64,000 bases of DNA from positions 10,664,001 through 10,728,000 of the forward strand of contig NC_079876.1 in NCBI RefSeq assembly GCF_029227915.1. The letters run 5' to 3'. A program made the translations under genes and the position numbers. The notes below the pieces were generated by a model. The model made no database searches. It saw only the letters and a list, made by a program, of their open reading frames with translations, and was not told the origin of the DNA. Positions 26,023 through 58,300 of this stretch are shown here, piece by piece (the first letter of the stretch is position 1; the number at the start of each line of letters is the position of its first letter). The DNA comes from Hydractinia symbiolongicarpus. Taxonomy: Eukaryota > Cnidaria > Hydrozoa > Anthoathecata > Hydractiniidae.

Positions 26023-26736
26023 TCAGATTTGAAATATTTAAATTTTGAATGTACAACAGTGGCTCGTTAGAGATAATTGAGAACTTCTGTTACTTAGGTG
26101 ATATGTTGGGCAGTGAAGGGGGTGTTGAAAGAAGTGTTACTTGCAGGATACTTTCTGCTTGGAAAAAGTTCAGAGAGTTACTTCCCTTGTTCACTAGCAG
26201 AGTCTTGTCAATCAAGGTAAAAGGTAGGTTGTATGAGGCCTGTGTAAGAAGTGTTATGTTGTACGGTAGTGAAACATGGGCAGTGCAGCAGGAATATCTT
26301 GACCGTTTAGAAAGGAATGATATAAGAATGGTTAGTTGGATGTGTAACACCAGTCTGAGAGACAGAATGAGTTCAGATAAGCTAAGAAGCAGGCTAAGTT
26401 TCCGAAGAATTAAAGATCTTATCCAGATAAGAAGATTGAGTTGGCTGGGGCACTTGGAAAGAATGGAGGAGGATAATTGGGTAAGAAAGTGTAGATACTT
26501 CATAGTTCCTGGGGCAAAGTCCAGAGGCAGACCGAGAAAGACTTGGCAGGAGGTTATAAGGACAGACTTGATACAGAGAAAGCGGAATTTAGATCTAACA
26601 CAGTCTAGATCAGATTGGAAGAGGGTCATTAATATACCCAGTCCAACCCATGCTAGCATGGAAAATGGACGTTAAGCCGAGAATGATGATGATGATGATG
26701 ATGAATAACTTCAAGATTTAAATATTTCAAATCTGA
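26023..26736. repeat. inverted repeat flanking a LINE fragment
   Basis: The left arm at 26023-26043 (TCAGATTTGAAATATTTAAA plus T) is the exact reverse complement of 26716-26736. With one mismatch the match extends about seven further bases inward. The arms bracket LINE copy 2 almost exactly. Confidence 0.85.
26049..26704 (+). mobile_element. LINE 3' fragment (copy 2), longest copy, with (GAT)n tail
   Basis: An open frame of 208 residues (26049-26675) covers the region after the reverse-transcriptase core of a non-LTR element. It contains the conserved FCYLGDML, LYGSETWA, WLGHLERM and GRPRKTW motifs. It ends in the same HASMENGR-stop and GATGATGATGATGATGATG tail as the other copies. The catalytic RT motifs and endonuclease are absent, so this is a 5'-truncated insertion that cannot move on its own. 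Confidence 0.9.
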
Positions 26737-27519: not shown

Positions 27520-28653
27520 TTAGTTTGTGAACTCAATACTATCGTCACTGATTTCATTTGAATAATCACAACTCTCATAATCTACACATGGATCACATAG
27601 CCCAAATTTCTCACAAAATTTTACTGTTTGTTGACGAGACTTCAAATTTGATTTGCTGTCCAGTTTAATAACAGCTAAATTTTCTCTAAATTTACTGCAA
27701 AAATTGCTTGCTTCAGTCATCATGTAAAAATTTTGTTCCTTCTCGAAATTTTCAAACGTGTCAATCTTCCCTGACTTCTTCATGTAATGATCAGTTGCTT
27801 TTAAGACTGACAACCATTGTAGATCATACTTTAAAACTACCTCTGAACTTGGCGAATCAAAGTTTAGTATTTGCATAAAATCATTAGATGGTAAACATTT
27901 TCCAAGTGCTAAAAACTTTGTGCTCTCTTTTGAATCATGCTGCACCAATGCTGCAAATTTGACATGATGGTGGGCAGCAAACCAGTATGTTGGTTTTAAC
28001 AAGCGAAGTAACTCTTCTGCTGGATCATTGTCAATTAAATACTTCTGAATCGGTTCCTCTCGTAGCCATGGTTTTTGCTCGTAAATTTGCTCAATATCAC
28101 CATACTTTTGTATATTAGAAGGCCAATCATGACTTAAAAATATATCAATGGGACTACCTTCCAAGTTTTTAAGTTTTGCAGTAGTAATTTGTTTTATATG
28201 ATAAAATGACCTCTTTGTACTTTCATTAAATGGCGGTTTTTCAAAGTAGCCTTTGTGGAAGTCATTTGTGTTAAATATTCCTGACATACCAGCTATACGA
28301 ATACCACCAACATTGATCACTCCAGCATAACCTAAGTAGTAAATATTTTCAGCTACCCAACCCCCATAAGGAAGTTCCCATAGATGATTGGCAGCTTCAT
28401 GATTTCCACCAATGAATATCGTCAGCAACGGAGCTTTTTTACGACCAGCATAGTAATCGTGAAAGTCTTTCATCTGACGATACTTCTTTGGAACAGCCAT
28501 ACTCATCAAATCGTCATGATTACGAGTTGCTTGAAAATCGCCACAACATATCAAAAAGTCAATTTTAATACTTTCTTTTTTTTCAACATGATCAATCAAA
28601 CTATATATCAAATCAAGATCACCGTGCGTACAACCTTGGACAGCAAATTTCAT
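27520..28653 (-). CDS. DBR1: lariat RNA debranching enzyme
   Basis: A single-exon coding region of 377 residues. It hydrolyses the 2'-5' phosphodiester bond of excised intron lariats, so it acts in nuclear intron turnover. The metallophosphoesterase motifs are visible in order: GCTHGDLD (residues 7-14), CCGDFQ (D39), GGNHE (N84, H85), LSHDWP and AAHHHVKF; these supply the metal and lariat ligands known in Dbr1. The start is taken at 28653 (MKFAVQGC), which matches the usual beginning of the family; the open frame runs further upstream but across an apparent AG acceptor at about 28674. The C-terminal region is shorter than in vertebrates (about 540 residues). The gene has no intron in its coding part, unlike most neighbours. 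An ISOC-type gene lies about 580 bp upstream on the same strand. Confidence 0.95.
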   Translation of the reverse strand: MKFAVQGCTHGDLDLIYSLIDHVEKKESIKIDFLICCGDFQATRNHDDLMSMAVPKKYRQMKDFHDYYAGRKKAPLLTIFIGGNHEAANHLWELPYGGWVAENIYYLGYAGVINVGGIRIAGMSGIFNTNDFHKGYFEKPPFNESTKRSFYHIKQITTAKLKNLEGSPIDIFLSHDWPSNIQKYGDIEQIYEQKPWLREEPIQKYLIDNDPAEELLRLLKPTYWFAAHHHVKFAALVQHDSKESTKFLALGKCLPSNDFMQILNFDSPSSEVVLKYDLQWLSVLKATDHYMKKSGKIDTFENFEKEQNFYMMTEASNFCSKFRENLAVIKLDSKSNLKSRQQTVKFCEKFGLCDPCVDYESCDYSNEISDDSIEFTN

Positions 28654-29234
28654 TTCTTTATTTTTGTATCTAAAAAATAATCCATGCATACATTTATACT
28701 GAAAGTTAATGTTTTGCTTTATGGGTAAATACCATTGACAAAAATTGACATTAGAGTATGATGCTAACTCATAAAAAAAAGAAATTACTAAATTCACAGG
28801 ACTTTCGAGGAATAGAAAAAAATAAATAAACGGGGCAATAAAAAGGGCATTTTCAGAAATATCCATAAATATGAGCTCATGAAAAAAAGTTCATTACATT
28901 AAAATAAATGTTTCCTCCATTTGGATACGTTTGCAAGTTATCAAAACTGTTTTTTACACCTTTATTATTTAAAAAGAATTAGCTTTTAAATTTTGCATTT
29001 GGCAGCTGCTGTTATAGACAAAAAAACAATTTTTAGCGATGCATAAAATAAGAACAAAATATTTAATTGGCATATTCTAACAAAAATAACTGCAGGCTGA
29101 TATTAAAATAAAAATATTAAAAGAAAAAAGAGCTACAATATAAAAAAGAAAAAATTTATTGAAATTAAAAAAGAAGAAAACATGGCTATTATTATTATTC
29201 TAATTAGGATTAAATTTGAAACTTGAAAAGGCAT
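28654..29234. other. spacer between ISOC-like and DBR1 genes
   Basis: Probably the 3' UTR of the ISOC-like gene plus the DBR1 promoter and 5' UTR. A possible acceptor TTTTTTAG just upstream of the DBR1 ATG suggests a 5' UTR intron. Confidence 0.45.
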
Positions 29235-29828
29235 TTACAACTTTGGGACTAGTCCTTGGTATGGAGATGATTCCATAATCAATTTTTGTAATTCACGAAA
29301 ATTTGGATGTTTAGCATCTTGCAACAACAGAAACAATAACGATTCACTGGTTGTAATGAAGCCACCACTTTGACGTATCCTTTCAAAAGCAATCATTCGA
29401 TCAGTCATACTTCTGGAAGATGTACTATCAGCAACAATATGCACATCATAACCCATCTCTAAGAAATCCAATGCTGTTTGTTGAACACAAACGTGAGCTT
29501 CTAAACCAAACAAAACAACTGACTTAAGATCTGGCCGTTTATCTTTCAAATGATTGATGACCTCTGGTGTTGCCATTGAAAAAAGTGTTTTCTCAAACAC
29601 GGTTGCATTTGTAACATCAAGTTCAGGAACAATATGACCAAGACCTTTAGGATATTGTTCTGTAGCAACCAGAGGAATTTTGAGTGTGTTTGCAGCTGTA
29701 ATCAAACGTTCTGCAACAACACAAATTTCAGGAAAATACGCAATGGAAGGTCGAAACTTTTCTTGAATATCACAAAGCAAAAATGCTGTTGCATCTGTAC
29801 ACATTTTACCAATTCTACGGACAGCCAT
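29235..29828 (-). CDS. isochorismatase-domain protein, ISOC1/2-like
   Basis: A complete, intronless coding region of 197 residues, close to the usual length of ISOC2. It belongs to the cysteine-hydrolase (isochorismatase-like) superfamily. Putative catalytic triad: D20 (LLCDIQEKF), K80 (VFEKTLFSM) and C114 (EAHVCVQQT). The substrate of the animal members is not established; cytosolic or mitochondrial locations are reported for the family. No signal peptide is evident. The start Met at 29828 precedes RRIGKMCTDATAF; Met9 is an alternative. DBR1 lies downstream on the same strand. Confidence 0.95.
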   Translation of the reverse strand: MAVRRIGKMCTDATAFLLCDIQEKFRPSIAYFPEICVVAERLITAANTLKIPLVATEQYPKGLGHIVPELDVTNATVFEKTLFSMATPEVINHLKDKRPDLKSVVLFGLEAHVCVQQTALDFLEMGYDVHIVADSTSSRSMTDRMIAFERIRQSGGFITTSESLLFLLLQDAKHPNFRELQKLIMESSPYQGLVPKL

Positions 29829-37203: not shown

Positions 37204-37865
37204 GCCGTAGATTAGTGGTTATGTTCTGCCCAGATTGCAAAAACGGCCTGTTTACAACCAGGACAGCCGGATTATGTACACATGATCCGATTATGTTTTT
37301 TTTGCACTGGTTATGTAGTGGTGACCGGATTATGAACGCTGATATAATGGCTGGCCAGGCAGGCTGTGATTGGCATTTTCTTCGAACCTTTGTGAATTAA
37401 ACATTCTCTGGAAGATAGAACACCCCTAAAAACTAGAGATGGCGGAAGAAAAAAGTCATTCTTAGTAAAAAGGTAATTCTTAGTTTAAAACTAATCTTGT
37501 AGTAAATACATTTCAGCATAATACACTTTGAAGTAACTAAATTTCACGGAACCTAAATTATTCTTTTTGCGGGAATTAAGTTTGGTGAAAAGTTATTAAA
37601 CTTGCGAATCCCAAAATTTAGTATTTGCCGCGAAATTTCGTTTCATTTGAGAGCAACAACAACTTTGCCACCAGGGCTATTCGCTTTCAGAAGTGATGAC
37701 GAATGATATAAAAGCGGTCGGCCCCGAATATATTTGTTCTATAAGTCTGGAATAATATTTGACTGTGTCATACATAAGTCAGCCTGCCCCGATTATGTTC
37801 GTTCTATAATAAATGAGAAATAATATTACACTGTCGTATATAAAAACTGGCCTGCCCTGATTATA

Positions 37866-37912
37866 CAGTGCCGATCGCGAGTAAAGCTACACATTTTCGA
37901 GAGTAAGAGTAC
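37866..37912 (+). repeat. left TIR of the Tc1/mariner element
   Basis: CAGTGCCGATCGCGAGTAAA, then GCTACACAT, followed by GAGAGTAAGAGT. It pairs with the right end at about 41111-41157. Confidence 0.92.
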
Positions 37913-38094
37913 AAAAATAAAACAGTGAGAGTGCGAGTAATTCACTCCCGAGTACAACGCGAGTACAACTAAAATGATATTACTCGCATTTTTGTTAATC
38001 ATACTCTCAATGATTAATTATATTTTTACTCGCAAGTGTACTCACATAAGTACAGTTTTTAAAGTCAAAGTAATACGCGCGTGAACACATTTAA

Positions 38095-38340
38095 TTTTTT
38101 TGCGAGAGATATTAAATTGTAAACGTTAAAAAAATCAAGTTAAAAAAATTAAACTTTTTTTGCGAGAGATAATAAATTGTAAACTTTAAAAAAATTAGGT
38201 TAAAAAAATTAAACTTTTTTTGCGAGAGATATTAAATTGTAAACTTTAAAAAAAATTAAGTTAAAAAAATTAAACTTTTCTTGCGAGAGATATTATATTG
38301 TAAACTTTAAAAAAATTAAGTTAAAAAAATTAAACTTTAA
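38095..38340. repeat. 60-61-bp tandem repeat, four units, inside the Tc1 element
   Basis: Each unit starts TTTTTTTGCGAGAGATA and continues with TAAATTGTAAAC and runs of A. Differences between units are few. It lies between the left TIR and the 3' end of the transposase gene. Confidence 0.93.
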
Positions 38341-38638
38341 TTTTAAATAGTGAAAAAGACTGTGTTGTTTAGAAAGTAAAACAAATTTATTGTGGCATAA
38401 AAAAACTGAGAGTAAGAGATTACATGTTTTTTTTTAATTTTTTTTTTGCCTATTAATAAAAAGTCTGTGCCCAGAACTACGTTTCAATATCATCAAAAAC
38501 ATTGAGGATAAAAAGAGAAAAAACAAACAACAACAAAAGTATAGTAAAAAATGTATTAGTTGTTAAAATGAAAGTATATATACAAATAACTTTTACCGTT
38601 CAGTTTGAATGTTCAGTTTTATTACATAAAGTAGTTTT

Positions 38639-39658
38639 TTAAAAACCAGATGCCTTTCCGTTTCTTTCAATGACTTTCGGAATTACCTTGCGTAAGTGTG
38701 AAATATACTTTCGGCATTTTTCTGGCGTCACAGCCGACCATATTTCCGAAATTGCATTTACCAATTCTTCTTTCGTGTGCGGTTTATAATCATTTCGAAT
38801 TTTTTCCTTCATTTCATGCCAAAAGTTTTCTATAGGGTTCATGTCTGGTGATTCAGGCGGGGTTTTCCACCAGTTTATTTGATTTTCCTGCATCACTTGC
38901 GACGCTTTCAAACTGGTGTGTTTGGGGTCGTTATCTTGCATAAACCTATGCCCATCTGGAAATACATCGGAAATAAACGGTTTCAACGTATTTTTTAAAA
39001 TTTCTTCAGAGTAGAACTCTTTGTCCATTATGCCGTGAAAAATTAAAATTGGAGATGCGCCACGTTTTGATATGCATCCCCAAACGTTAAGTTTAAAAGG
39101 ATGTTTTGGTTTTCCTTTTAATTTTGCTGGCTCCCACCAGCGATGAAAAGATACCTTTCCGTTCCAGTCCATTTGAATGCAACTCTCGTCTGTCCATAAA
39201 ACATTGCCGAAATCATCTTCCATTTCTTGTACTTTTTTAGCGAAGATAAGCCTTTTTTGACGATTTACTTCCCTTACAAGTTGACAGTACTTTGTCCCAG
39301 TGGAGTACCAACCGAGACCACGTCTTAATCTTTTGATTTTACTTGTAGAAAAGCTAACATTAAATTGCTGAAGCAAAAGTTGTCCAAGCTTGTTAGCAGT
39401 GAGTTCGTCGTTTTTCTCCATGCAGGTGTCGATAAAATCGAGAATGGGGTTTGTAACATTTATTGGTGACTTCGGTTTCCTTGGAAGATTTGCGATAGAA
39501 TGATGCTTGGCCCACTTTTGAAAAAGACGATATATCGCTGACCTTCCAACATTATATCCTTCACTTTTAAGTCTTTTCTTAATTTCGGTGACACCAAGGT
39601 TTTCATTTTTTAAATTGATAATTCTTTGACGAACATGATCAGGTAATTGTTTCCCCAT
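38639..39658 (-). CDS. Tc1/mariner DD34E transposase
   Basis: 339 residues, a normal length for Tc1-type transposases, and intact. The N-terminal third has two helix-turn-helix-type segments (about residues 5-50 and 66-112) that bind the TIR. The catalytic triad is D157 (LWTDES), D242 (MQDNDPKH) and E277 (NPIENFW), with 34 residues between the last two. The GxxSxxG-like linker region and the PPxSPDMNPIE signature are typical. The enzyme cuts and pastes the element into TA sites. It is transcribed away from the second ORF, so the roughly 250 bp between them is probably a shared promoter. Confidence 0.97.
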   Translation of the reverse strand: MGKQLPDHVRQRIINLKNENLGVTEIKKRLKSEGYNVGRSAIYRLFQKWAKHHSIANLPRKPKSPINVTNPILDFIDTCMEKNDELTANKLGQLLLQQFNVSFSTSKIKRLRRGLGWYSTGTKYCQLVREVNRQKRLIFAKKVQEMEDDFGNVLWTDESCIQMDWNGKVSFHRWWEPAKLKGKPKHPFKLNVWGCISKRGASPILIFHGIMDKEFYSEEILKNTLKPFISDVFPDGHRFMQDNDPKHTSLKASQVMQENQINWWKTPPESPDMNPIENFWHEMKEKIRNDYKPHTKEELVNAISEIWSAVTPEKCRKYISHLRKVIPKVIERNGKASGF

Positions 39659-39914
39659 TTCGAGTGCTCCTTCTTTTTGGTTTGTTGATAAGAAATAAAA
39701 AACCGAAAAACAAATTCCCTATTAATCACTTCTGTTTTTTCACTCCCGAGTACAGTTAGAGTAAGAAATAAAAGAGCCGAAAATTTCATTCATCATTTAA
39801 TAACCTTTGTTTTTGTACTCCCGAGTATAGTTAGAGTAAGGGATAAAAAAGCCGAAAATCGAATTTCTTATTTAATGACTCTGTTTTTTCGCTCCGGAGT
39901 GCGATTGTGCTGCT
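39659..39914. promoter_or_regulatory. divergent intergenic region with iterated motifs
   Basis: Three copies of a unit of about 75 bp built around TAAGAAATAAAA.AGCCGAAAA (about 39690, 39764 and 39842). Two carry an upstream CTCCCGAGTA(C/T)AGTTAGAG block at 39743 and 39819; a partial GCTCCGGAGTGCG block sits at 39891. Its position between two divergent start codons suggests a shared regulatory region, possibly bound by an element-encoded protein. Confidence 0.6.
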
Positions 39915-40454
39915 ATGCGACAAATCATTGAAAGACTAGAAAAGCGACTAGCTGCGTTGGAAGGGAATGCAATTGCCTTATCCGCAAACTTTATCGACGA
40001 CAGTGACGAAGCATTACCTTCAGTCCAGGGGTTGTCTCCACTAAAGGCGATGCAGAGGACGAATATTGATGATGACGATTTTCAAATAAATGAAAGATTA
40101 AATAGAAAAAAATACAAGGTGGACACAGCTCCTACTATAGAAATTCCGACCGAATTCTGGCCGATAGCCAATGAAGTGAGACAAGGGGCGACATCTTTCA
40201 AAAACTTTAGCTATCTGTTGCTGGCTAAATTATTTGACCACAAGGAGCTTGTAGGAAGAAATTGTCGAGGAGTTAAAAAACCTGCGATTGATGGCTACAA
40301 ACAAGATATTGTTAAAGCTTTTTGTTGGAAGTTTTATCCAACCAACATGGCTGCACCGGGTGCATGGAGGGACTGTCAACGTGCAATTGATGAATTTATA
40401 CGACGTAGCAACAGAACAAAGAAAAATTATAAATCATGCATGTTGCAGTCATAA
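39915..40454 (+). CDS. Tc1-element accessory protein with coiled-coil start and BEN-like domain
   Basis: 179 residues and intact. Residues 1-20 (MRQIIERLEKRLAALEG) look like a short coiled coil. Residues 25-60 are acidic. Residues about 95-165 fit the BEN-domain pattern: FSYLLLAKLFDHKELVGRN, then a basic G-V-K-K loop, then a helix through YKQDIVKAF..KF, then W151 and CQRAIDEFIRR. BEN domains are DNA- or protein-binding modules in chromatin regulators and some virus and transposon proteins. It is divergently oriented to the transposase inside the same TIRs, so it moves with the element. A role as DNA-binding cofactor or regulator is inferred. The BEN assignment is by eye. Confidence 0.72.
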   Translation: MRQIIERLEKRLAALEGNAIALSANFIDDSDEALPSVQGLSPLKAMQRTNIDDDDFQINERLNRKKYKVDTAPTIEIPTEFWPIANEVRQGATSFKNFSYLLLAKLFDHKELVGRNCRGVKKPAIDGYKQDIVKAFCWKFYPTNMAAPGAWRDCQRAIDEFIRRSNRTKKNYKSCMLQS

Positions 40455-41110
40455 AACTCTTTCAGTTAATAACTTTTTTGTAAATATTTTTTTAGATGTA
40501 AATATTTTTTATTTTTAGATTTTTTTAAAAAAATATATCATTAAACATTAAACTGTTTTTTTTTATAAAAAAAATCCCTCACGTTATTTTGTTGCTTCGA
40601 TCTTTAAACATCCCAACAAAAACAAAAAGATAACAAGCTTAGTGACGTCCTGTTTCTACGGCGATATTTTAAAATTATACAGATTGTTGTCTGAGTTATA
40701 AAGCAATGTTTGTTGAAAAATATTCAGAAAGCAAAGTCTGCATGTGGCAATTGATCACCATAACTATAATTAGATATCATTCTGACTCTGTGTTTGCGAA
40801 AGAACATGCTGGAAGTGATTTCACATAACGAAAGTAGCGAAAGCATTTAAAGAAGAGACACAAAAGTTGAACTTAAAAATTTATTTTTTAATTATAAACT
40901 AAATTAAAAAAAAATTAAATGGTGAATTAAAATTAATGTCTTATGTTTTTCTTTAATATAACTCGCGAGTAACATGATATATTTTTTTAAAGATTTACTC
41001 GCGGGTAGTTTAATTATTGCGTACTCGCGTTATTAAAAAGATTACTCTCGTTTATTTTACTCGCACTCGCATTGTACTCTCACTCTGAACTATTTTACTC
41101 GCATTTATTT

Positions 41111-41157
41111 GCACTCGTACTCTCAAAGATGTGTAGCTTTACTCGCGATCGGCACTG
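41111..41157 (-). repeat. right TIR of the Tc1/mariner element
   Basis: Complementary to the left end; the terminal 29 bases are identical, with mismatches further in. Confidence 0.92.
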
Positions 41158-41939
41158 TATGTCCCTTTTATAAGTGCCAAATAATATTTTTTGAGTAATA
41201 AGCCGGCCTGTCCTGATTATGTTGCCCTGATTATGTATTTTCTGCCCTGTTCTTAACCGGTGCAAGCTGCCGTACTTAATCAGGCCAATGTTCATTATCC
41301 GGGCAGAACAGTTATAGCTCTCGTACTCTGTGTGGGAGACCGGGGTTCGATTCCTCTTGACGGCGATTCAACATGGGCGAGTGAATGTTACCATAGCCCT
41401 GGGTTAACCCAAGCCATGTGAGGGAAATTGGGAAGATGGCACACTGTGTGGGCCCTTGGATGTTGCCGGGAATTGTCTAGTAGAGTGCGGGCTCTAATTG
41501 GGTCTGCGTAGCTCAAAATGAGCATTAAATACTCTAGGACTCTCCATCTACGCCATGGCCCCTCCTGGAAATAATAGACAGGGTATATCCCTCATATTTG
41601 TGAGGCTAGCCATGTAAAATATGCACATCTATCTATCTATCTATCTACCTGTTCTCTACGGTGTGTGTGGCTGCTGTGGAACGGGCCAGTGTTTCCAAGA
41701 ATTCTAATTCTTACCACCATTGAAGTAAAATTGTTAGCTCGCGCTCGGCCATCAAACGGAAAATGCGATACCTATTGAATAAACCCAACCGTCCCGAGGG
41801 GTATAATTTGCCATCTTTCGTTTTGTTTGTTTATACATGAATCGCGTGTTATTAAATTAAAAGTGTTGCTAGACAGATTGAGGCTGCAAATTCTTGTTAG
41901 AAGCGCAGCGAAACCTACGTTCGTTTATAGCTTGAAGCA

Positions 41940-55359: not shown

Positions 55360-58300
55360 TCATTCGTCTAAATCCACGACAAGTTCTCCATCTGTATCAG
55401 ACAATGGCGAACTAACAGGAGTCTCCTCTGCCGAGTCTATAACGTTATCACTATCAGAAGATCTCAACGAGGCTTGTGCCAAATCTAAATCATTTTTCAA
55501 AGGAGTGCGACTTGCGTAGTTCTCGGGATGCGATGCTTCGTATTCACTTTCTGATCGAAAGTCCTTCGGAAAGAATACGTTCGCCGTGTTGGCACGGATA
55601 ACTGGTGTGACTTGACTCACCAGCTCCGACATTGATCTTCGATGTTCGTGTAGAAAAGGGGACCCAGGAGCTGCTCTCCCCTCATAATTTTGGTAGCTCA
55701 TCGGACTGTGTGTAAGGAGAGGCCCCTCTGAGTGAGGTCTGGGTATCAAGAGATTTTTGCGACTGGCCTCCTCAGTCGCAAATTTATATACAGAATTGGA
55801 AGAGTGTTGTGCTTTTGGAGCATGGGATTTAGTCTGCAAGTTTTTGTCTGTGTGACGTAATGGTTTAATTGTTGTCACATCTAAGACTCGTGCTAACATT
55901 TTCTCACCGAAACGAAAATGTAATCTTTTGTGTGGCACTTTTTCCAAGATCTTCATTTTGTAGTAGTAACGCATTGCTCGCGCCATTTTTTCGTAGGTCA
56001 TGCATGTACGGTTCTTTGATTGTCCCCATAAGTCAGCTATCACAGCTGTCTTGATTAACCGAAATTCACCCCGTTCTCGATTAGTCCATTCAATGCATTT
56101 GTTGGGTTTATTCTTTTCTTGGTCTAACATACTACGTAAAAATTGCCATAAATGTAAGCAGTTGTTATCTAAAGAAACAAACCAAGAGATAACATTAAAA
56201 TAATTTTACATCTTCAGGATTGAAAACCTCCTACGAAGTCTGCAACGACTGATGGTATCAGATGTAATTTATTGAAATAAATAAATGAAAACAAAAGGTT
56301 ATAATTCAAAACAACGACTTACTTTTTGTTCTCTTTTTTTCCTTCGCAATGGCTTGCCCCAAGTGTTCATTCGCCACCATAGTTAAACTCAGTAGGCCTC
56401 CCAGACCAGATTTGTTATCACTTGATTGAGTACTATCGACAGTCGAGACTTGTACCAATGAAGGCGGGGAAGTTGAAAAAGAATGCTCTTGTTTCATTTG
56501 GTCTTGATCACCCAATTCCTTTTTTACTCCATCTACTCCAGCTTCGTATCCGCTATGGATAGTCCTTATATCAGTGGACATATTATGATCACGTGATTGT
56601 TTCTCTCTTGATTCAGCCATCATTTTTTCGACGTGCGCATCGAAGGCTTTAAGGGCTGCTTTAGATGCTTCGTCGTATACATGAAGTCTGTGCCCGTTGA
56701 CGTACTTGTTATGATGATTAGACACATGTCCACTTTGCTCTGAGTATGGCCGAGTTTCACAAGGCGGCGAGGTACTCTCACTTACCGAACAATATGCATG
56801 TTTTATGTGGAGGCTAGATTTTTTATTCGGACGAGTTAGGCTAATATTGGAAGGATCACTCGAATAACCACTTTCAGTCGAGTACACTCGATGTATTGTT
56901 GACGGACGAATAACAGAAAAAGCACTGGGTCGAGTTTCACTTGTTTCGTGTAACGTGTTACGTGTAGCGTATTCTTCTTCATATTTTGAGCGTACTAAAT
57001 CATACCGTGATTCCGTTTCAGATGTAGATATAGATTCCTGTTTATAACGACGGTAATACGGATGAATGCCGTCTTCATATTTACGCTGCGACGTGCAATG
57101 CGTCCAACGACGTTCTGGTGAATGACGACTTTCTCTGTCATAAGGCGACTTTTTGCTCATTCGACCTTCGTCAATAGTTTTATTGTAAATTAAATCATAG
57201 TAAGTGTAACCACTCATATCCTTATGTGGAATATCAGCTCTTATTGGTGTATATTTAATACGAGGCTTTGTATGAGAACGAGACTTACAATGTTCATCTT
57301 TTGTTAAACAAGGGCATCCTTCTGTGCATTTGATTGGATAAGAACTTGCGCCACGTTCTAACTCATACCGCCCTTCTACAATCTGTTCTTCCCGCCTTGG
57401 AGGCGTAAAACTTAATCGCAAATCACTTTCATAATTTGGTACAGATTCGATTCGTTTTCTGCTCGATGCATGCAATTCATATGGGCGATGAATTTTTGGA
57501 GATACAGATCTCACTCTTGCTTGATGCTCATATTGATCATTCTCAGCCCTGCATCTACGCTCTTCATGATGTGCACTATGTACAGGTACTAATGAATGCA
57601 TTTCTTCTCGTCGTATTTTCTCGAAGGATGTGTTGTAATAAGAGCTTGGATAGCCGCGATCGATGTAATTAAACGGAGGCCTTATAACAGCCTGACCACG
57701 TGTTTCGAGCATCGTTTTATAATTTTTATCTTCTATTCTCGGTTGAACTAATTCTTCTTCGGTTTCCGGTAATTTGCACAAATATGGCTGGAATAGTTTC
57801 TTGTTATTGTTGTTGTTATTTTCGCATTTTGTTTCAAATGTTGTCAATTGTATTGGCTACAAATAAAGACAAACAAGGAATAAAAAAATAGAAGTGTTAA
57901 AACAGTATTAATAAGAAAATATAACAATGCTTTGTTGTGATATTGTTTATAAGTTTCTCTTTTTTATAAAGAGACATAATGTGTAATAAAAAGTAATGAT
58001 ATCCAAAACACGTGCTAAAAATAATTTACCAATCTTTACAAATTTTATCCGAATAAAACTTGGACTCAGTCCACTTTAATGTTTAAACAATACAAATGGA
58101 CAATTATAATGGAGAGTTAAAGTTGTTTTTAAAATTATACTCAGACTTCGTATCGCATTTTGTAGTATAGGAAATATAAGAAAGTTGAAGAAAGAAAAAC
58201 AACTTTCGAGACAACTAAAAATTACAAAAATATAACTAAAATAATGTTGAAAATTATCTTACTAGAAATAATGTCAACCAATCATGTTTGACTACCATTT

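What the first reader, a model, noticed from the sequence alone, without database searches (positions are those of the whole stretch)
37866..41157. Tc1/mariner element carrying a second, BEN-like gene
Tc1/mariner elements normally encode only a transposase. Here matching TIRs with TA duplications enclose an intact DD34E transposase and a divergent, intact 179-residue ORF with a coiled-coil start and a BEN-like domain. Both ORFs appear functional, so the second gene may be under selection as part of the element. A DNA-binding partner could regulate transposition, target the element to chromatin, or counter silencing. The structure is visible in the sequence; the BEN call and the role are inferred.
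Basis: partly seen in the sequence, partly recalled or inferred. Interest (0 to 1): 0.87.

Follow-up and report, generated by a model that had tools for sequence, protein, structure and literature searches.

The report
Two-gene Tc1 transposon with BEN partner
The window holds a young jumping gene of the Tc1 family that carries the end of a second gene, for a DNA-binding BEN protein; sibling copies keep the whole second gene and distant element families of the same genome keep the same pairing, although elements of this kind were thought to need only one protein.

Summary
The element is real: 37866-41157, TIRs, TA at both ends, a 339-residue DD34E transposase and a divergent ORF. The 179-residue ORF is BEN-type but not a complete gene. 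This copy lacks 1,498 bp that a sibling (4 mismatches over the remaining 3,292 positions) still has; the lost stretch holds two exons and the start of a third. In 7 of 12 copies with an unbroken 3' part, three predicted exons read through GT-AG introns into a 443- or 451-residue protein.

The pairing is no single capture. A family with a 58% identical transposase (L019) keeps the divergent pair. A 5,898-bp element with its own 70-bp TIRs and TA (D1) holds a truncated transposase and a BEN gene in tandem. Nine of 20 Pfam-level BEN loci lie within 5 kb of a Tc1-type transposase match (0.03 expected). In the pairs tested both genes have lower pN/pS than every neutral simulation. Window and D1 elements each carry dense subterminal repeats of their own (CGAGTA; ATCGTG).

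Best reading: a Tc1/mariner lineage with a BEN accessory gene; that the BEN protein binds the element's repeats is inferred. My searches found no paper describing it. New variant of a known kind.

The parts
37864..37865 (.). TA target-site duplication, left
   Evidence: sequence; TA both sides in 8 of 8 copies with both ends held
37866..37915 (+). left terminal inverted repeat, CAGTGCCGATCGCGAGTAA...
   Evidence: arms 37863-37915/41108-41160, 92%
37866..38115 (.). left subterminal repeats: 6 CGAGTA (both strands)
   Evidence: none in the coding parts
38095..38338 (.). 60-bp tandem repeat, 4.1 units, in the left non-coding arm
38639..39658 (-). transposase, 339 aa, DD34E
39659..39914 (.). stretch between the genes, shared two-way promoter region (inferred); 256 bp here, 1,754 bp in the C3 copy
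39689..39900 (.). 75-bp tandem repeat (2.9 units) between the genes, holding CTCNNGAG palindromes at 39743, 39818 and 39892
39898..39899 (.). junction of the 1,498-bp deletion that removed exons 1 and 2 and the start of exon 3 of the BEN gene
39899..40454 (+). remaining 3' part of exon 3 of the BEN gene; longest ATG frame 39915-40454, 179 aa
40149..40427 (+). BEN domain (residues 79-171; Pfam match residues 100-165)
40908..41157 (.). right subterminal repeats: 6 CGAGTA (both strands); palindrome AACTCGCGAGTA at about 40960
41108..41157 (-). right terminal inverted repeat
41158..41159 (.). TA target-site duplication, right

Best explanation
A lineage of Tc1/mariner (DD34E) elements that carries a standing second gene for a BEN protein: an N-terminal domain (exon 1), a charged exon 2, then a coiled-coil-like stretch and a C-terminal BEN domain (exon 3). 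The window copy is a young, internally deleted member that keeps the transposase and only the BEN end. Shown: both genes lie inside TA-flanked TIRs in the window family and in D1; the pair recurs in L019 and at further loci; both genes are constrained in the pairs tested. Inferred: the transposase cuts and pastes as in other Tc1 elements; the BEN protein binds, probably as a dimer, to the repeated sites near both ends (CGAGTA here, ATCGTG in D1) and to ACTCNNGAGT palindromes between the two genes, and so helps to build or target the cleavage complex and tunes both promoters, as the Myb-like partner does in Harbinger elements. I put the two-gene architecture at about 0.95, a DNA-binding accessory or regulatory role at about 0.6, and the choice between cleavage helper and promoter regulator at about even.
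For: TIRs, TA and transposase. BEN identity. Seven of 12 copies predict a whole three-exon BEN protein, 2 of 12 with an unbroken transposase as well. L019: transposase 58%, BEN end 47% over 115 residues, divergent, related termini. D1: 5,898 bp with 70-bp TIRs, TA and both genes; D2 matches it at 92-96% across both. Nine of 20 Pfam-level BEN loci within 5 kb of a transposase match, random mean 0.03, maximum 2 of 2,000 draws. pN/pS below every neutral simulation for both genes in two pairs. Family-specific subterminal repeats and palindromes between the genes. One database protein shows the exact splice junction of a related BEN gene.
Against: The window copy itself lacks a whole BEN gene, as do 5 of 12 copies, and copies with either gene broken have multiplied, which fits supply in trans but also dispensability. 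No expression or binding was tested for the window family. The repeats could serve the transposase. The L019 BEN frame starts at GTG and its left flank reads TG, not TA. D1's transposase lacks its C-terminal part, which D2 has in a frame broken elsewhere. The transposase tree does not group the BEN-linked rows (3 changes, as in shuffles), so one origin is not shown. L019 holds only one ACTCNNGAGT.
Confidence: 0.6

Rival explanations
1. The BEN protein acts on the host, not on transposition: as a chromatin or boundary factor it keeps the element from being silenced, or steers insertion to certain chromatin.
For: Host BEN proteins are chromatin and transcription factors (PMC10206803, passages). 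The gene is constrained and keeps an extra N-terminal domain and charged exon.
Against: It does not explain the family-specific repeats at both ends and the palindromes between the genes, unless the transposase alone uses them.
Confidence: 0.2
2. A repressor only: the BEN protein, or 5'-deleted forms such as the one in the window, shuts down the shared promoter and limits copy number.
For: Palindromes lie in the stretch between the genes, 8 in the C3 copy and 2 in the window. Five of 12 copies with the open 3' part have lost 5' exons in different ways.
Against: No promoter or expression data; in the D1 lineage the genes are in tandem and do not share a promoter region in the same way.
Confidence: 0.12
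3. Passenger: BEN genes of a large family have been picked up more than once by Tc1 elements and have no role in them.
For: Two gene orders (divergent and tandem); BEN-linked transposases in two separate clades with unlabelled rows between; 11 of 20 BEN loci have no transposase match within 5 kb.
Against: pN/pS of the BEN gene stays low between families; at least 2 of those 11 loci (C5:21718997, C12:7779012) adjoin D1-family DNA and a third (L093) is 89% identical to the L089 gene.
Confidence: 0.06
4. The ORF is not a BEN protein, or is a chance open frame.
For: The window ORF alone is under Pfam's cut-off and found no database protein; Foldseek E-values are weak on a model of mean pLDDT 62.
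Against: Homologues pass the cut-off; 4 of 5 database homologues of the profile carry PF10523; PDB profile match E 2e-13; constraint.
Confidence: 0.02

Closest known systems
Tc1 branch of the Tc1/mariner superfamily (Sleeping Beauty, Tc1)
   Same: DD34E transposase, TA duplication, CAGT termini (CAGT as typical is recalled), cut-and-paste copies
   Different: these typically encode only the transposase (PMC12242761, passages); here a three-exon BEN gene and dense subterminal repeats are added
Oxytricha TBE and Euplotes Tec elements
   Same: Tc1/mariner-type elements with further genes; TBE carries a 57-kDa and a 22-kDa protein under purifying selection (PMC12242761, passages); Tec carries a recombinase (PMC7325037, passages)
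   Different: ciliate elements with zinc-finger/kinase, unknown or recombinase partners; no BEN protein
PIF/Harbinger with Myb-like partner
   Same: transposase plus a DNA-binding partner that binds the TIRs and travels with the transposase into the nucleus (PMC9179366, passages): the closest working model
   Different: another superfamily and another DNA-binding fold
Two-gene element with a FLYWCH protein in the Lambdina fiscellaria baculovirus
   Same: about 2-kb element, transposase plus a small DNA- or protein-binding partner inside inverted repeats (PMC4447894, whole text)
   Different: FLYWCH, 118-nt repeats, 12-nt rather than TA duplication as described; superfamily not named there
Host BEN proteins BANP and BEND3
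   Same: BEN fold; BANP prefers TCTCGCGAGA and TCTCG (PMC10206803, passages), which shares CTC-NN-GAG with the element's palindrome
   Different: host factors, 13-18% identity in the BEN rows of the structure search; binding of the element's sites is untested

Membership tests
Tc1/mariner superfamily, Tc1 (DD34E) branch | DDE transposase with 34 residues between the second D and the E | tested here: met
   D157, D242, E277; DDE_3; SB100X E 4.6e-23
Tc1/mariner superfamily, Tc1 (DD34E) branch | insertion at TA with TA duplication, inverted termini | tested here: met
   8 of 8 window-family copies with both ends held; D1; in L019 the left flank reads TG
Tc1/mariner superfamily, Tc1 (DD34E) branch | single gene, transposase only | tested here: not met
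   BEN gene in the element in several families; a typical, not a strictly defining, feature (PMC12242761)
BEN domain family (PF10523) | score over Pfam's curated cut-off | tested here: inconclusive
   window 16 bits and whole 451-aa protein 13.4 bits, cut-off 23.2; L019 no match; L089 30.5 and L090 35.8 bits pass
BEN domain family (PF10523) | BEN fold or profile match to solved BEN domains | tested here: met
   BEND3 E 2e-13 with a 5-sequence profile; 11 best Foldseek matches BEN, E 0.15 and up
BEN domain family (PF10523) | sequence-specific DNA binding | not testable with these tools
   needs purified protein
PIF/Harbinger-like two-protein transposition (works like) | partner needed for transposition | not testable with these tools
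   needs an excision assay
PIF/Harbinger-like two-protein transposition (works like) | both genes evolve together across families | tested here: inconclusive
   BEN tree keeps window with L019 and L095 with L033/L034, as in the transposase tree, but not the third group; long branches meet

The most novel reading that the evidence does not exclude
A Tc1/mariner group has turned from one-protein to two-protein transposition: a BEN protein acts as a co-factor that binds subterminal repeats, evolves together with family-specific repeats at the ends (CGAGTA, ATCGTG) and also controls a shared two-way promoter; the pairing is old, and some BEN genes of the host genome may descend from such elements.
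Probability: 0.4. Interest if true: 0.85.

Novelty: new variant of a known kind. Interest (0 to 1): 0.74.

Why it matters
Tc1/mariner elements are the textbook one-gene transposons and the base of gene-transfer tools (recalled). A lineage that keeps a second, DNA-binding gene would show that this superfamily too can depend on, or be regulated by, an accessory protein. It gives a natural BEN protein with a ready-made set of candidate targets, and a possible source of BEN genes in eukaryotic genomes.

Tried and rejected
Single chance capture: rejected by the L019 and D1 families and by the clustering of BEN loci with transposase matches.

Deletions that spare the second gene: with the window copy as reference, 13 young copies with an internal gap had 6 gaps hitting only the transposase, 0 only ORF2 and 7 both; not significant (P 0.06 to 0.19 by margin and criterion), and void, because the window copy itself lacks the 5' exons. 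Against the C3 copy, 12 copies chosen for an open 3' BEN part (so biased towards BEN) have 7 unbroken BEN genes; the genome search lists 5 window-family places with an unbroken transposase; 2 copies have both.

dN/dS proper: synonymous sites are saturated between window and L019 (pS 0.83 and 0.82), so only pN/pS against simple neutral simulations is given; the first 49 aligned BEN codons gave pN 0.48 against pS 0.78, without a simulation. Older copies of the window family that I read are broken and say nothing on selection.

Window ORF against the protein database: 214 candidates, none at E 0.01. Viral contigs: none. One origin of the pairing: not shown. Host: not placed. CGAGTA in D1: 0. In one search the label 'no BEN seen' rests on about 1.5 kb either side of the match only; L037 so labelled is 98.6% identical to BEN-linked L038 over 1,969 bp.

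Limits of counts: the genome tool scores only its best candidates, so loci are lower bounds. The random control used my own guesses for the lengths of contigs C9 and C14. The tree used 75 of the 120 listed database hits (length and every-third-row thinning).

Literature: searches (one search was rejected for its wording). BEN domain with transposase gave 12 papers, with DNA transposon 2, with transposon and Tc1 2; in the 20 of 184 listed the term BEN domain does not occur. By their listings none is about a BEN gene in a transposon; I did not open those papers. Only open-licence papers are held.
Full report
What is there. The element spans 37866-41157, has CAGTGCCGATCGCGAGTAA at both ends and lies between TA dinucleotides. 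On the minus strand is an unbroken 339-residue transposase; diverging from it on the plus strand is a 179-residue ORF. The transposase has DDE_3, 34 residues between the second D and the E, and matches Sleeping Beauty SB100X at E 4.6e-23: a Tc1 DD34E element. TA flanks both ends in 8 of 8 copies whose two ends were held.

The genome. The window lies on contig 2 of an unnamed 481-Mb, 76-contig assembly, a eukaryote and by its ORFs probably an animal (by eye). The family is young: 12 places hold the 179-codon stretch with identical protein and no stop (43 matches listed, 107 candidates scored); of 20 regions fetched, 9 carry all 540 nt without a difference and the rest are partial, older or other families. 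The window copy differs from the C3 sibling at 4 of 3,292 positions outside the deletion.

The main correction. The extra 1,498 bp carry two exons and the first part of a third; the introns have GT-AG ends and keep the frame (211 + 179 + 942 nt). Of the 12 copies, 7 read through all three exons without a stop (six predict 451, one 443 residues); 5, the window among them, lost 5' exons by different deletions. The splice sites are predicted, not shown by RNA of this family. Five window-family places keep an unbroken transposase; two copies keep both genes.

Is it BEN? Alone, the window ORF scores 16 bits, below Pfam's 23.2; its L019 relative has no Pfam match, a third homologue 22.9 bits, but L089 and L090 pass with 30.5 and 35.8 bits. 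A profile of five homologues finds five database proteins at E 0.01 (5,268 candidates), four with PF10523, and in the PDB six sequences at E 1, all BEND3 BEN domains, best E 2e-13. The AlphaFold model (6 sequences, mean pLDDT 62, best in the first part of the domain) has BANP, BEND3, NACC1, Bsg25A and insensitive BEN domains as its 11 best Foldseek matches, none below E 0.15.

Is the pairing a standing one? (a) L019 on C12 has an unbroken transposase 58% identical and a BEN end 47% identical over 115 residues, again divergent, with related termini and long TIRs of about 76%. Its BEN frame starts at GTG, it too has a short stretch between the genes, and its left flank reads TG, not TA. A broken relative on C11 (L024/L055) has about 1,275 bp there, with a stretch resembling exon 1. 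(b) D1 on C10 is 5,898 bp long with 70-bp TIRs at 98.6% and TA on both sides; it holds a transposase split by apparent introns and a BEN gene in the same orientation. Its transposase lacks the C-terminal part; D2 on the same contig, 92-96% identical over both genes, has that part, but its frames are broken elsewhere. D1-type DNA is found on many other contigs (59 matches, 39 of 249 candidates scored). (c) L033, L034 and L095 hold divergent pairs in which the transposase or the BEN frame is broken. (d) On C13, L038 and L089 form a tandem pair 4.2 kb apart. Over the whole genome 20 BEN loci pass Pfam's cut-off (27 candidates scored); 9 of 20 (6 tandem, 3 divergent) lie within 5 kb of one of 69 merged transposase-like loci, against a random mean of 0.03 and a maximum of 2 in 2,000 draws. 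The other 11 have no such neighbour at E 1e-10; two of them adjoin D1-type DNA and one is 89% identical to the L089 gene. The window and L019 families are not among the 20.

Constraint. Window against L019: pN/pS 0.337 for the transposase and 0.444 for the last 113 BEN codons, each below all 200 neutral simulations (minima 0.758 and 0.648); synonymous sites are saturated. L089 against L090: BEN exon 0.567 over 210 codons (minimum of 300 simulations 0.779); the transposase stretch of the matching families (L031, L038; L038 has one stop in it) 0.321 over 153 codons (minimum 0.644). Database protein P0125 shows the junction that removes an 84-nt GT-AG intron from the L089 gene, which suggests a spliced transcript of a relative.

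History. In a tree of 86 transposases the BEN-linked rows need 3 changes, as many as in shuffles. Window and L019 sit in one starred clade of 8 rows, L095, L033/L034, D1/D2 and L038 in another of 9; both hold rows of unknown status, and the first also L030 and L036, where no BEN was seen within about 1.5 kb. The BEN tree gives window with L019 (100/100) and L095 with L033/L034 (100/99) as clades, but not the third group, and long branches meet. One old origin with losses and two gains are both open, as is the cause of the two gene orders.

How it may work. Tc1 elements usually carry one or two transposase sites per end (recalled). Here the ends are dense in a family-specific repeat: CGAGTA 6+6 in the outer 250 bp of the window element and 0 in its two ORFs; ATCGTG 7+10 in the outer 400 bp of D1 and 0 in the 5.1 kb between. 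Part of these lie in the TIRs, so the two ends are not independent. In the C3 copy ACTCNNGAGT occurs 8 times between the genes and once near each end (window: 2, 1, 1; L019: one in all), but not in 60.6 kb of window outside the element; the 8 sit in a tandem repeat. This palindrome shares CTC-NN-GAG with the BANP site TCTCGCGAGA (PMC10206803, passages). I infer that the BEN protein binds these sites as a dimer, helps the transposase at the ends and tunes both genes. The repeats might instead serve the transposase.

Known relatives. PMC12242761 (passages) calls accessory proteins surprising for Tc1/mariner and describes the Oxytricha TBE exception, whose accessory proteins did not change transposase binding in E. 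coli; PMC7325037 (passages) mentions Tec. Harbinger elements work with a Myb-like partner (PMC9179366, passages). A two-gene element with a FLYWCH protein sits in a baculovirus (PMC4447894, whole text). I found no paper on a BEN gene inside a transposon by searches, in a library of open-licence papers only.

Verdict. A Tc1/mariner lineage with a standing BEN gene is well supported. The window copy is a truncated member. The role of the BEN protein is inferred.

Noticed in passing
G000:C2:27300167-27311980: Five transposase-like units in a row at about 1.8-2.4 kb spacing, all on the plus strand, with a BEN locus about 2 kb past the last; might be a tandem array or a retired element cluster.
   Followed up: no
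38095-38338 and 39689-39900: Two minisatellites inside the element (60-bp and 75-bp units); the stretch between the genes that holds the second differs in length among near-identical copies (256, 778, 925, 1,067 and 1,754 bp in five copies).
   Followed up: partly
G000:C7:12615562-12619857: Chimeric copy: left part 94%, right part 100% identical to the window element, as if recombination or gene conversion joined two subfamilies.
   Followed up: no
L096 and L097 (G000:C10:16602400-16609900): D1 seems to sit inside the BEN gene of an L095-type element: L095-like sequence is seen on both sides (by eye).
   Followed up: no
41318-41500: Sequence beside the element with GGTTCGATTCC, like a tRNA-derived SINE (by eye); ARAGORN lists no tRNA gene in the window.
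   Followed up: no
26049-26675, 27520-28866, 29235-29828, 55360-56130: By eye: a reverse-transcriptase tail, a lariat-debranching-enzyme-like ORF, an isochorismatase-like ORF and an ETS-like ORF; names recalled, not tested.
   Followed up: no
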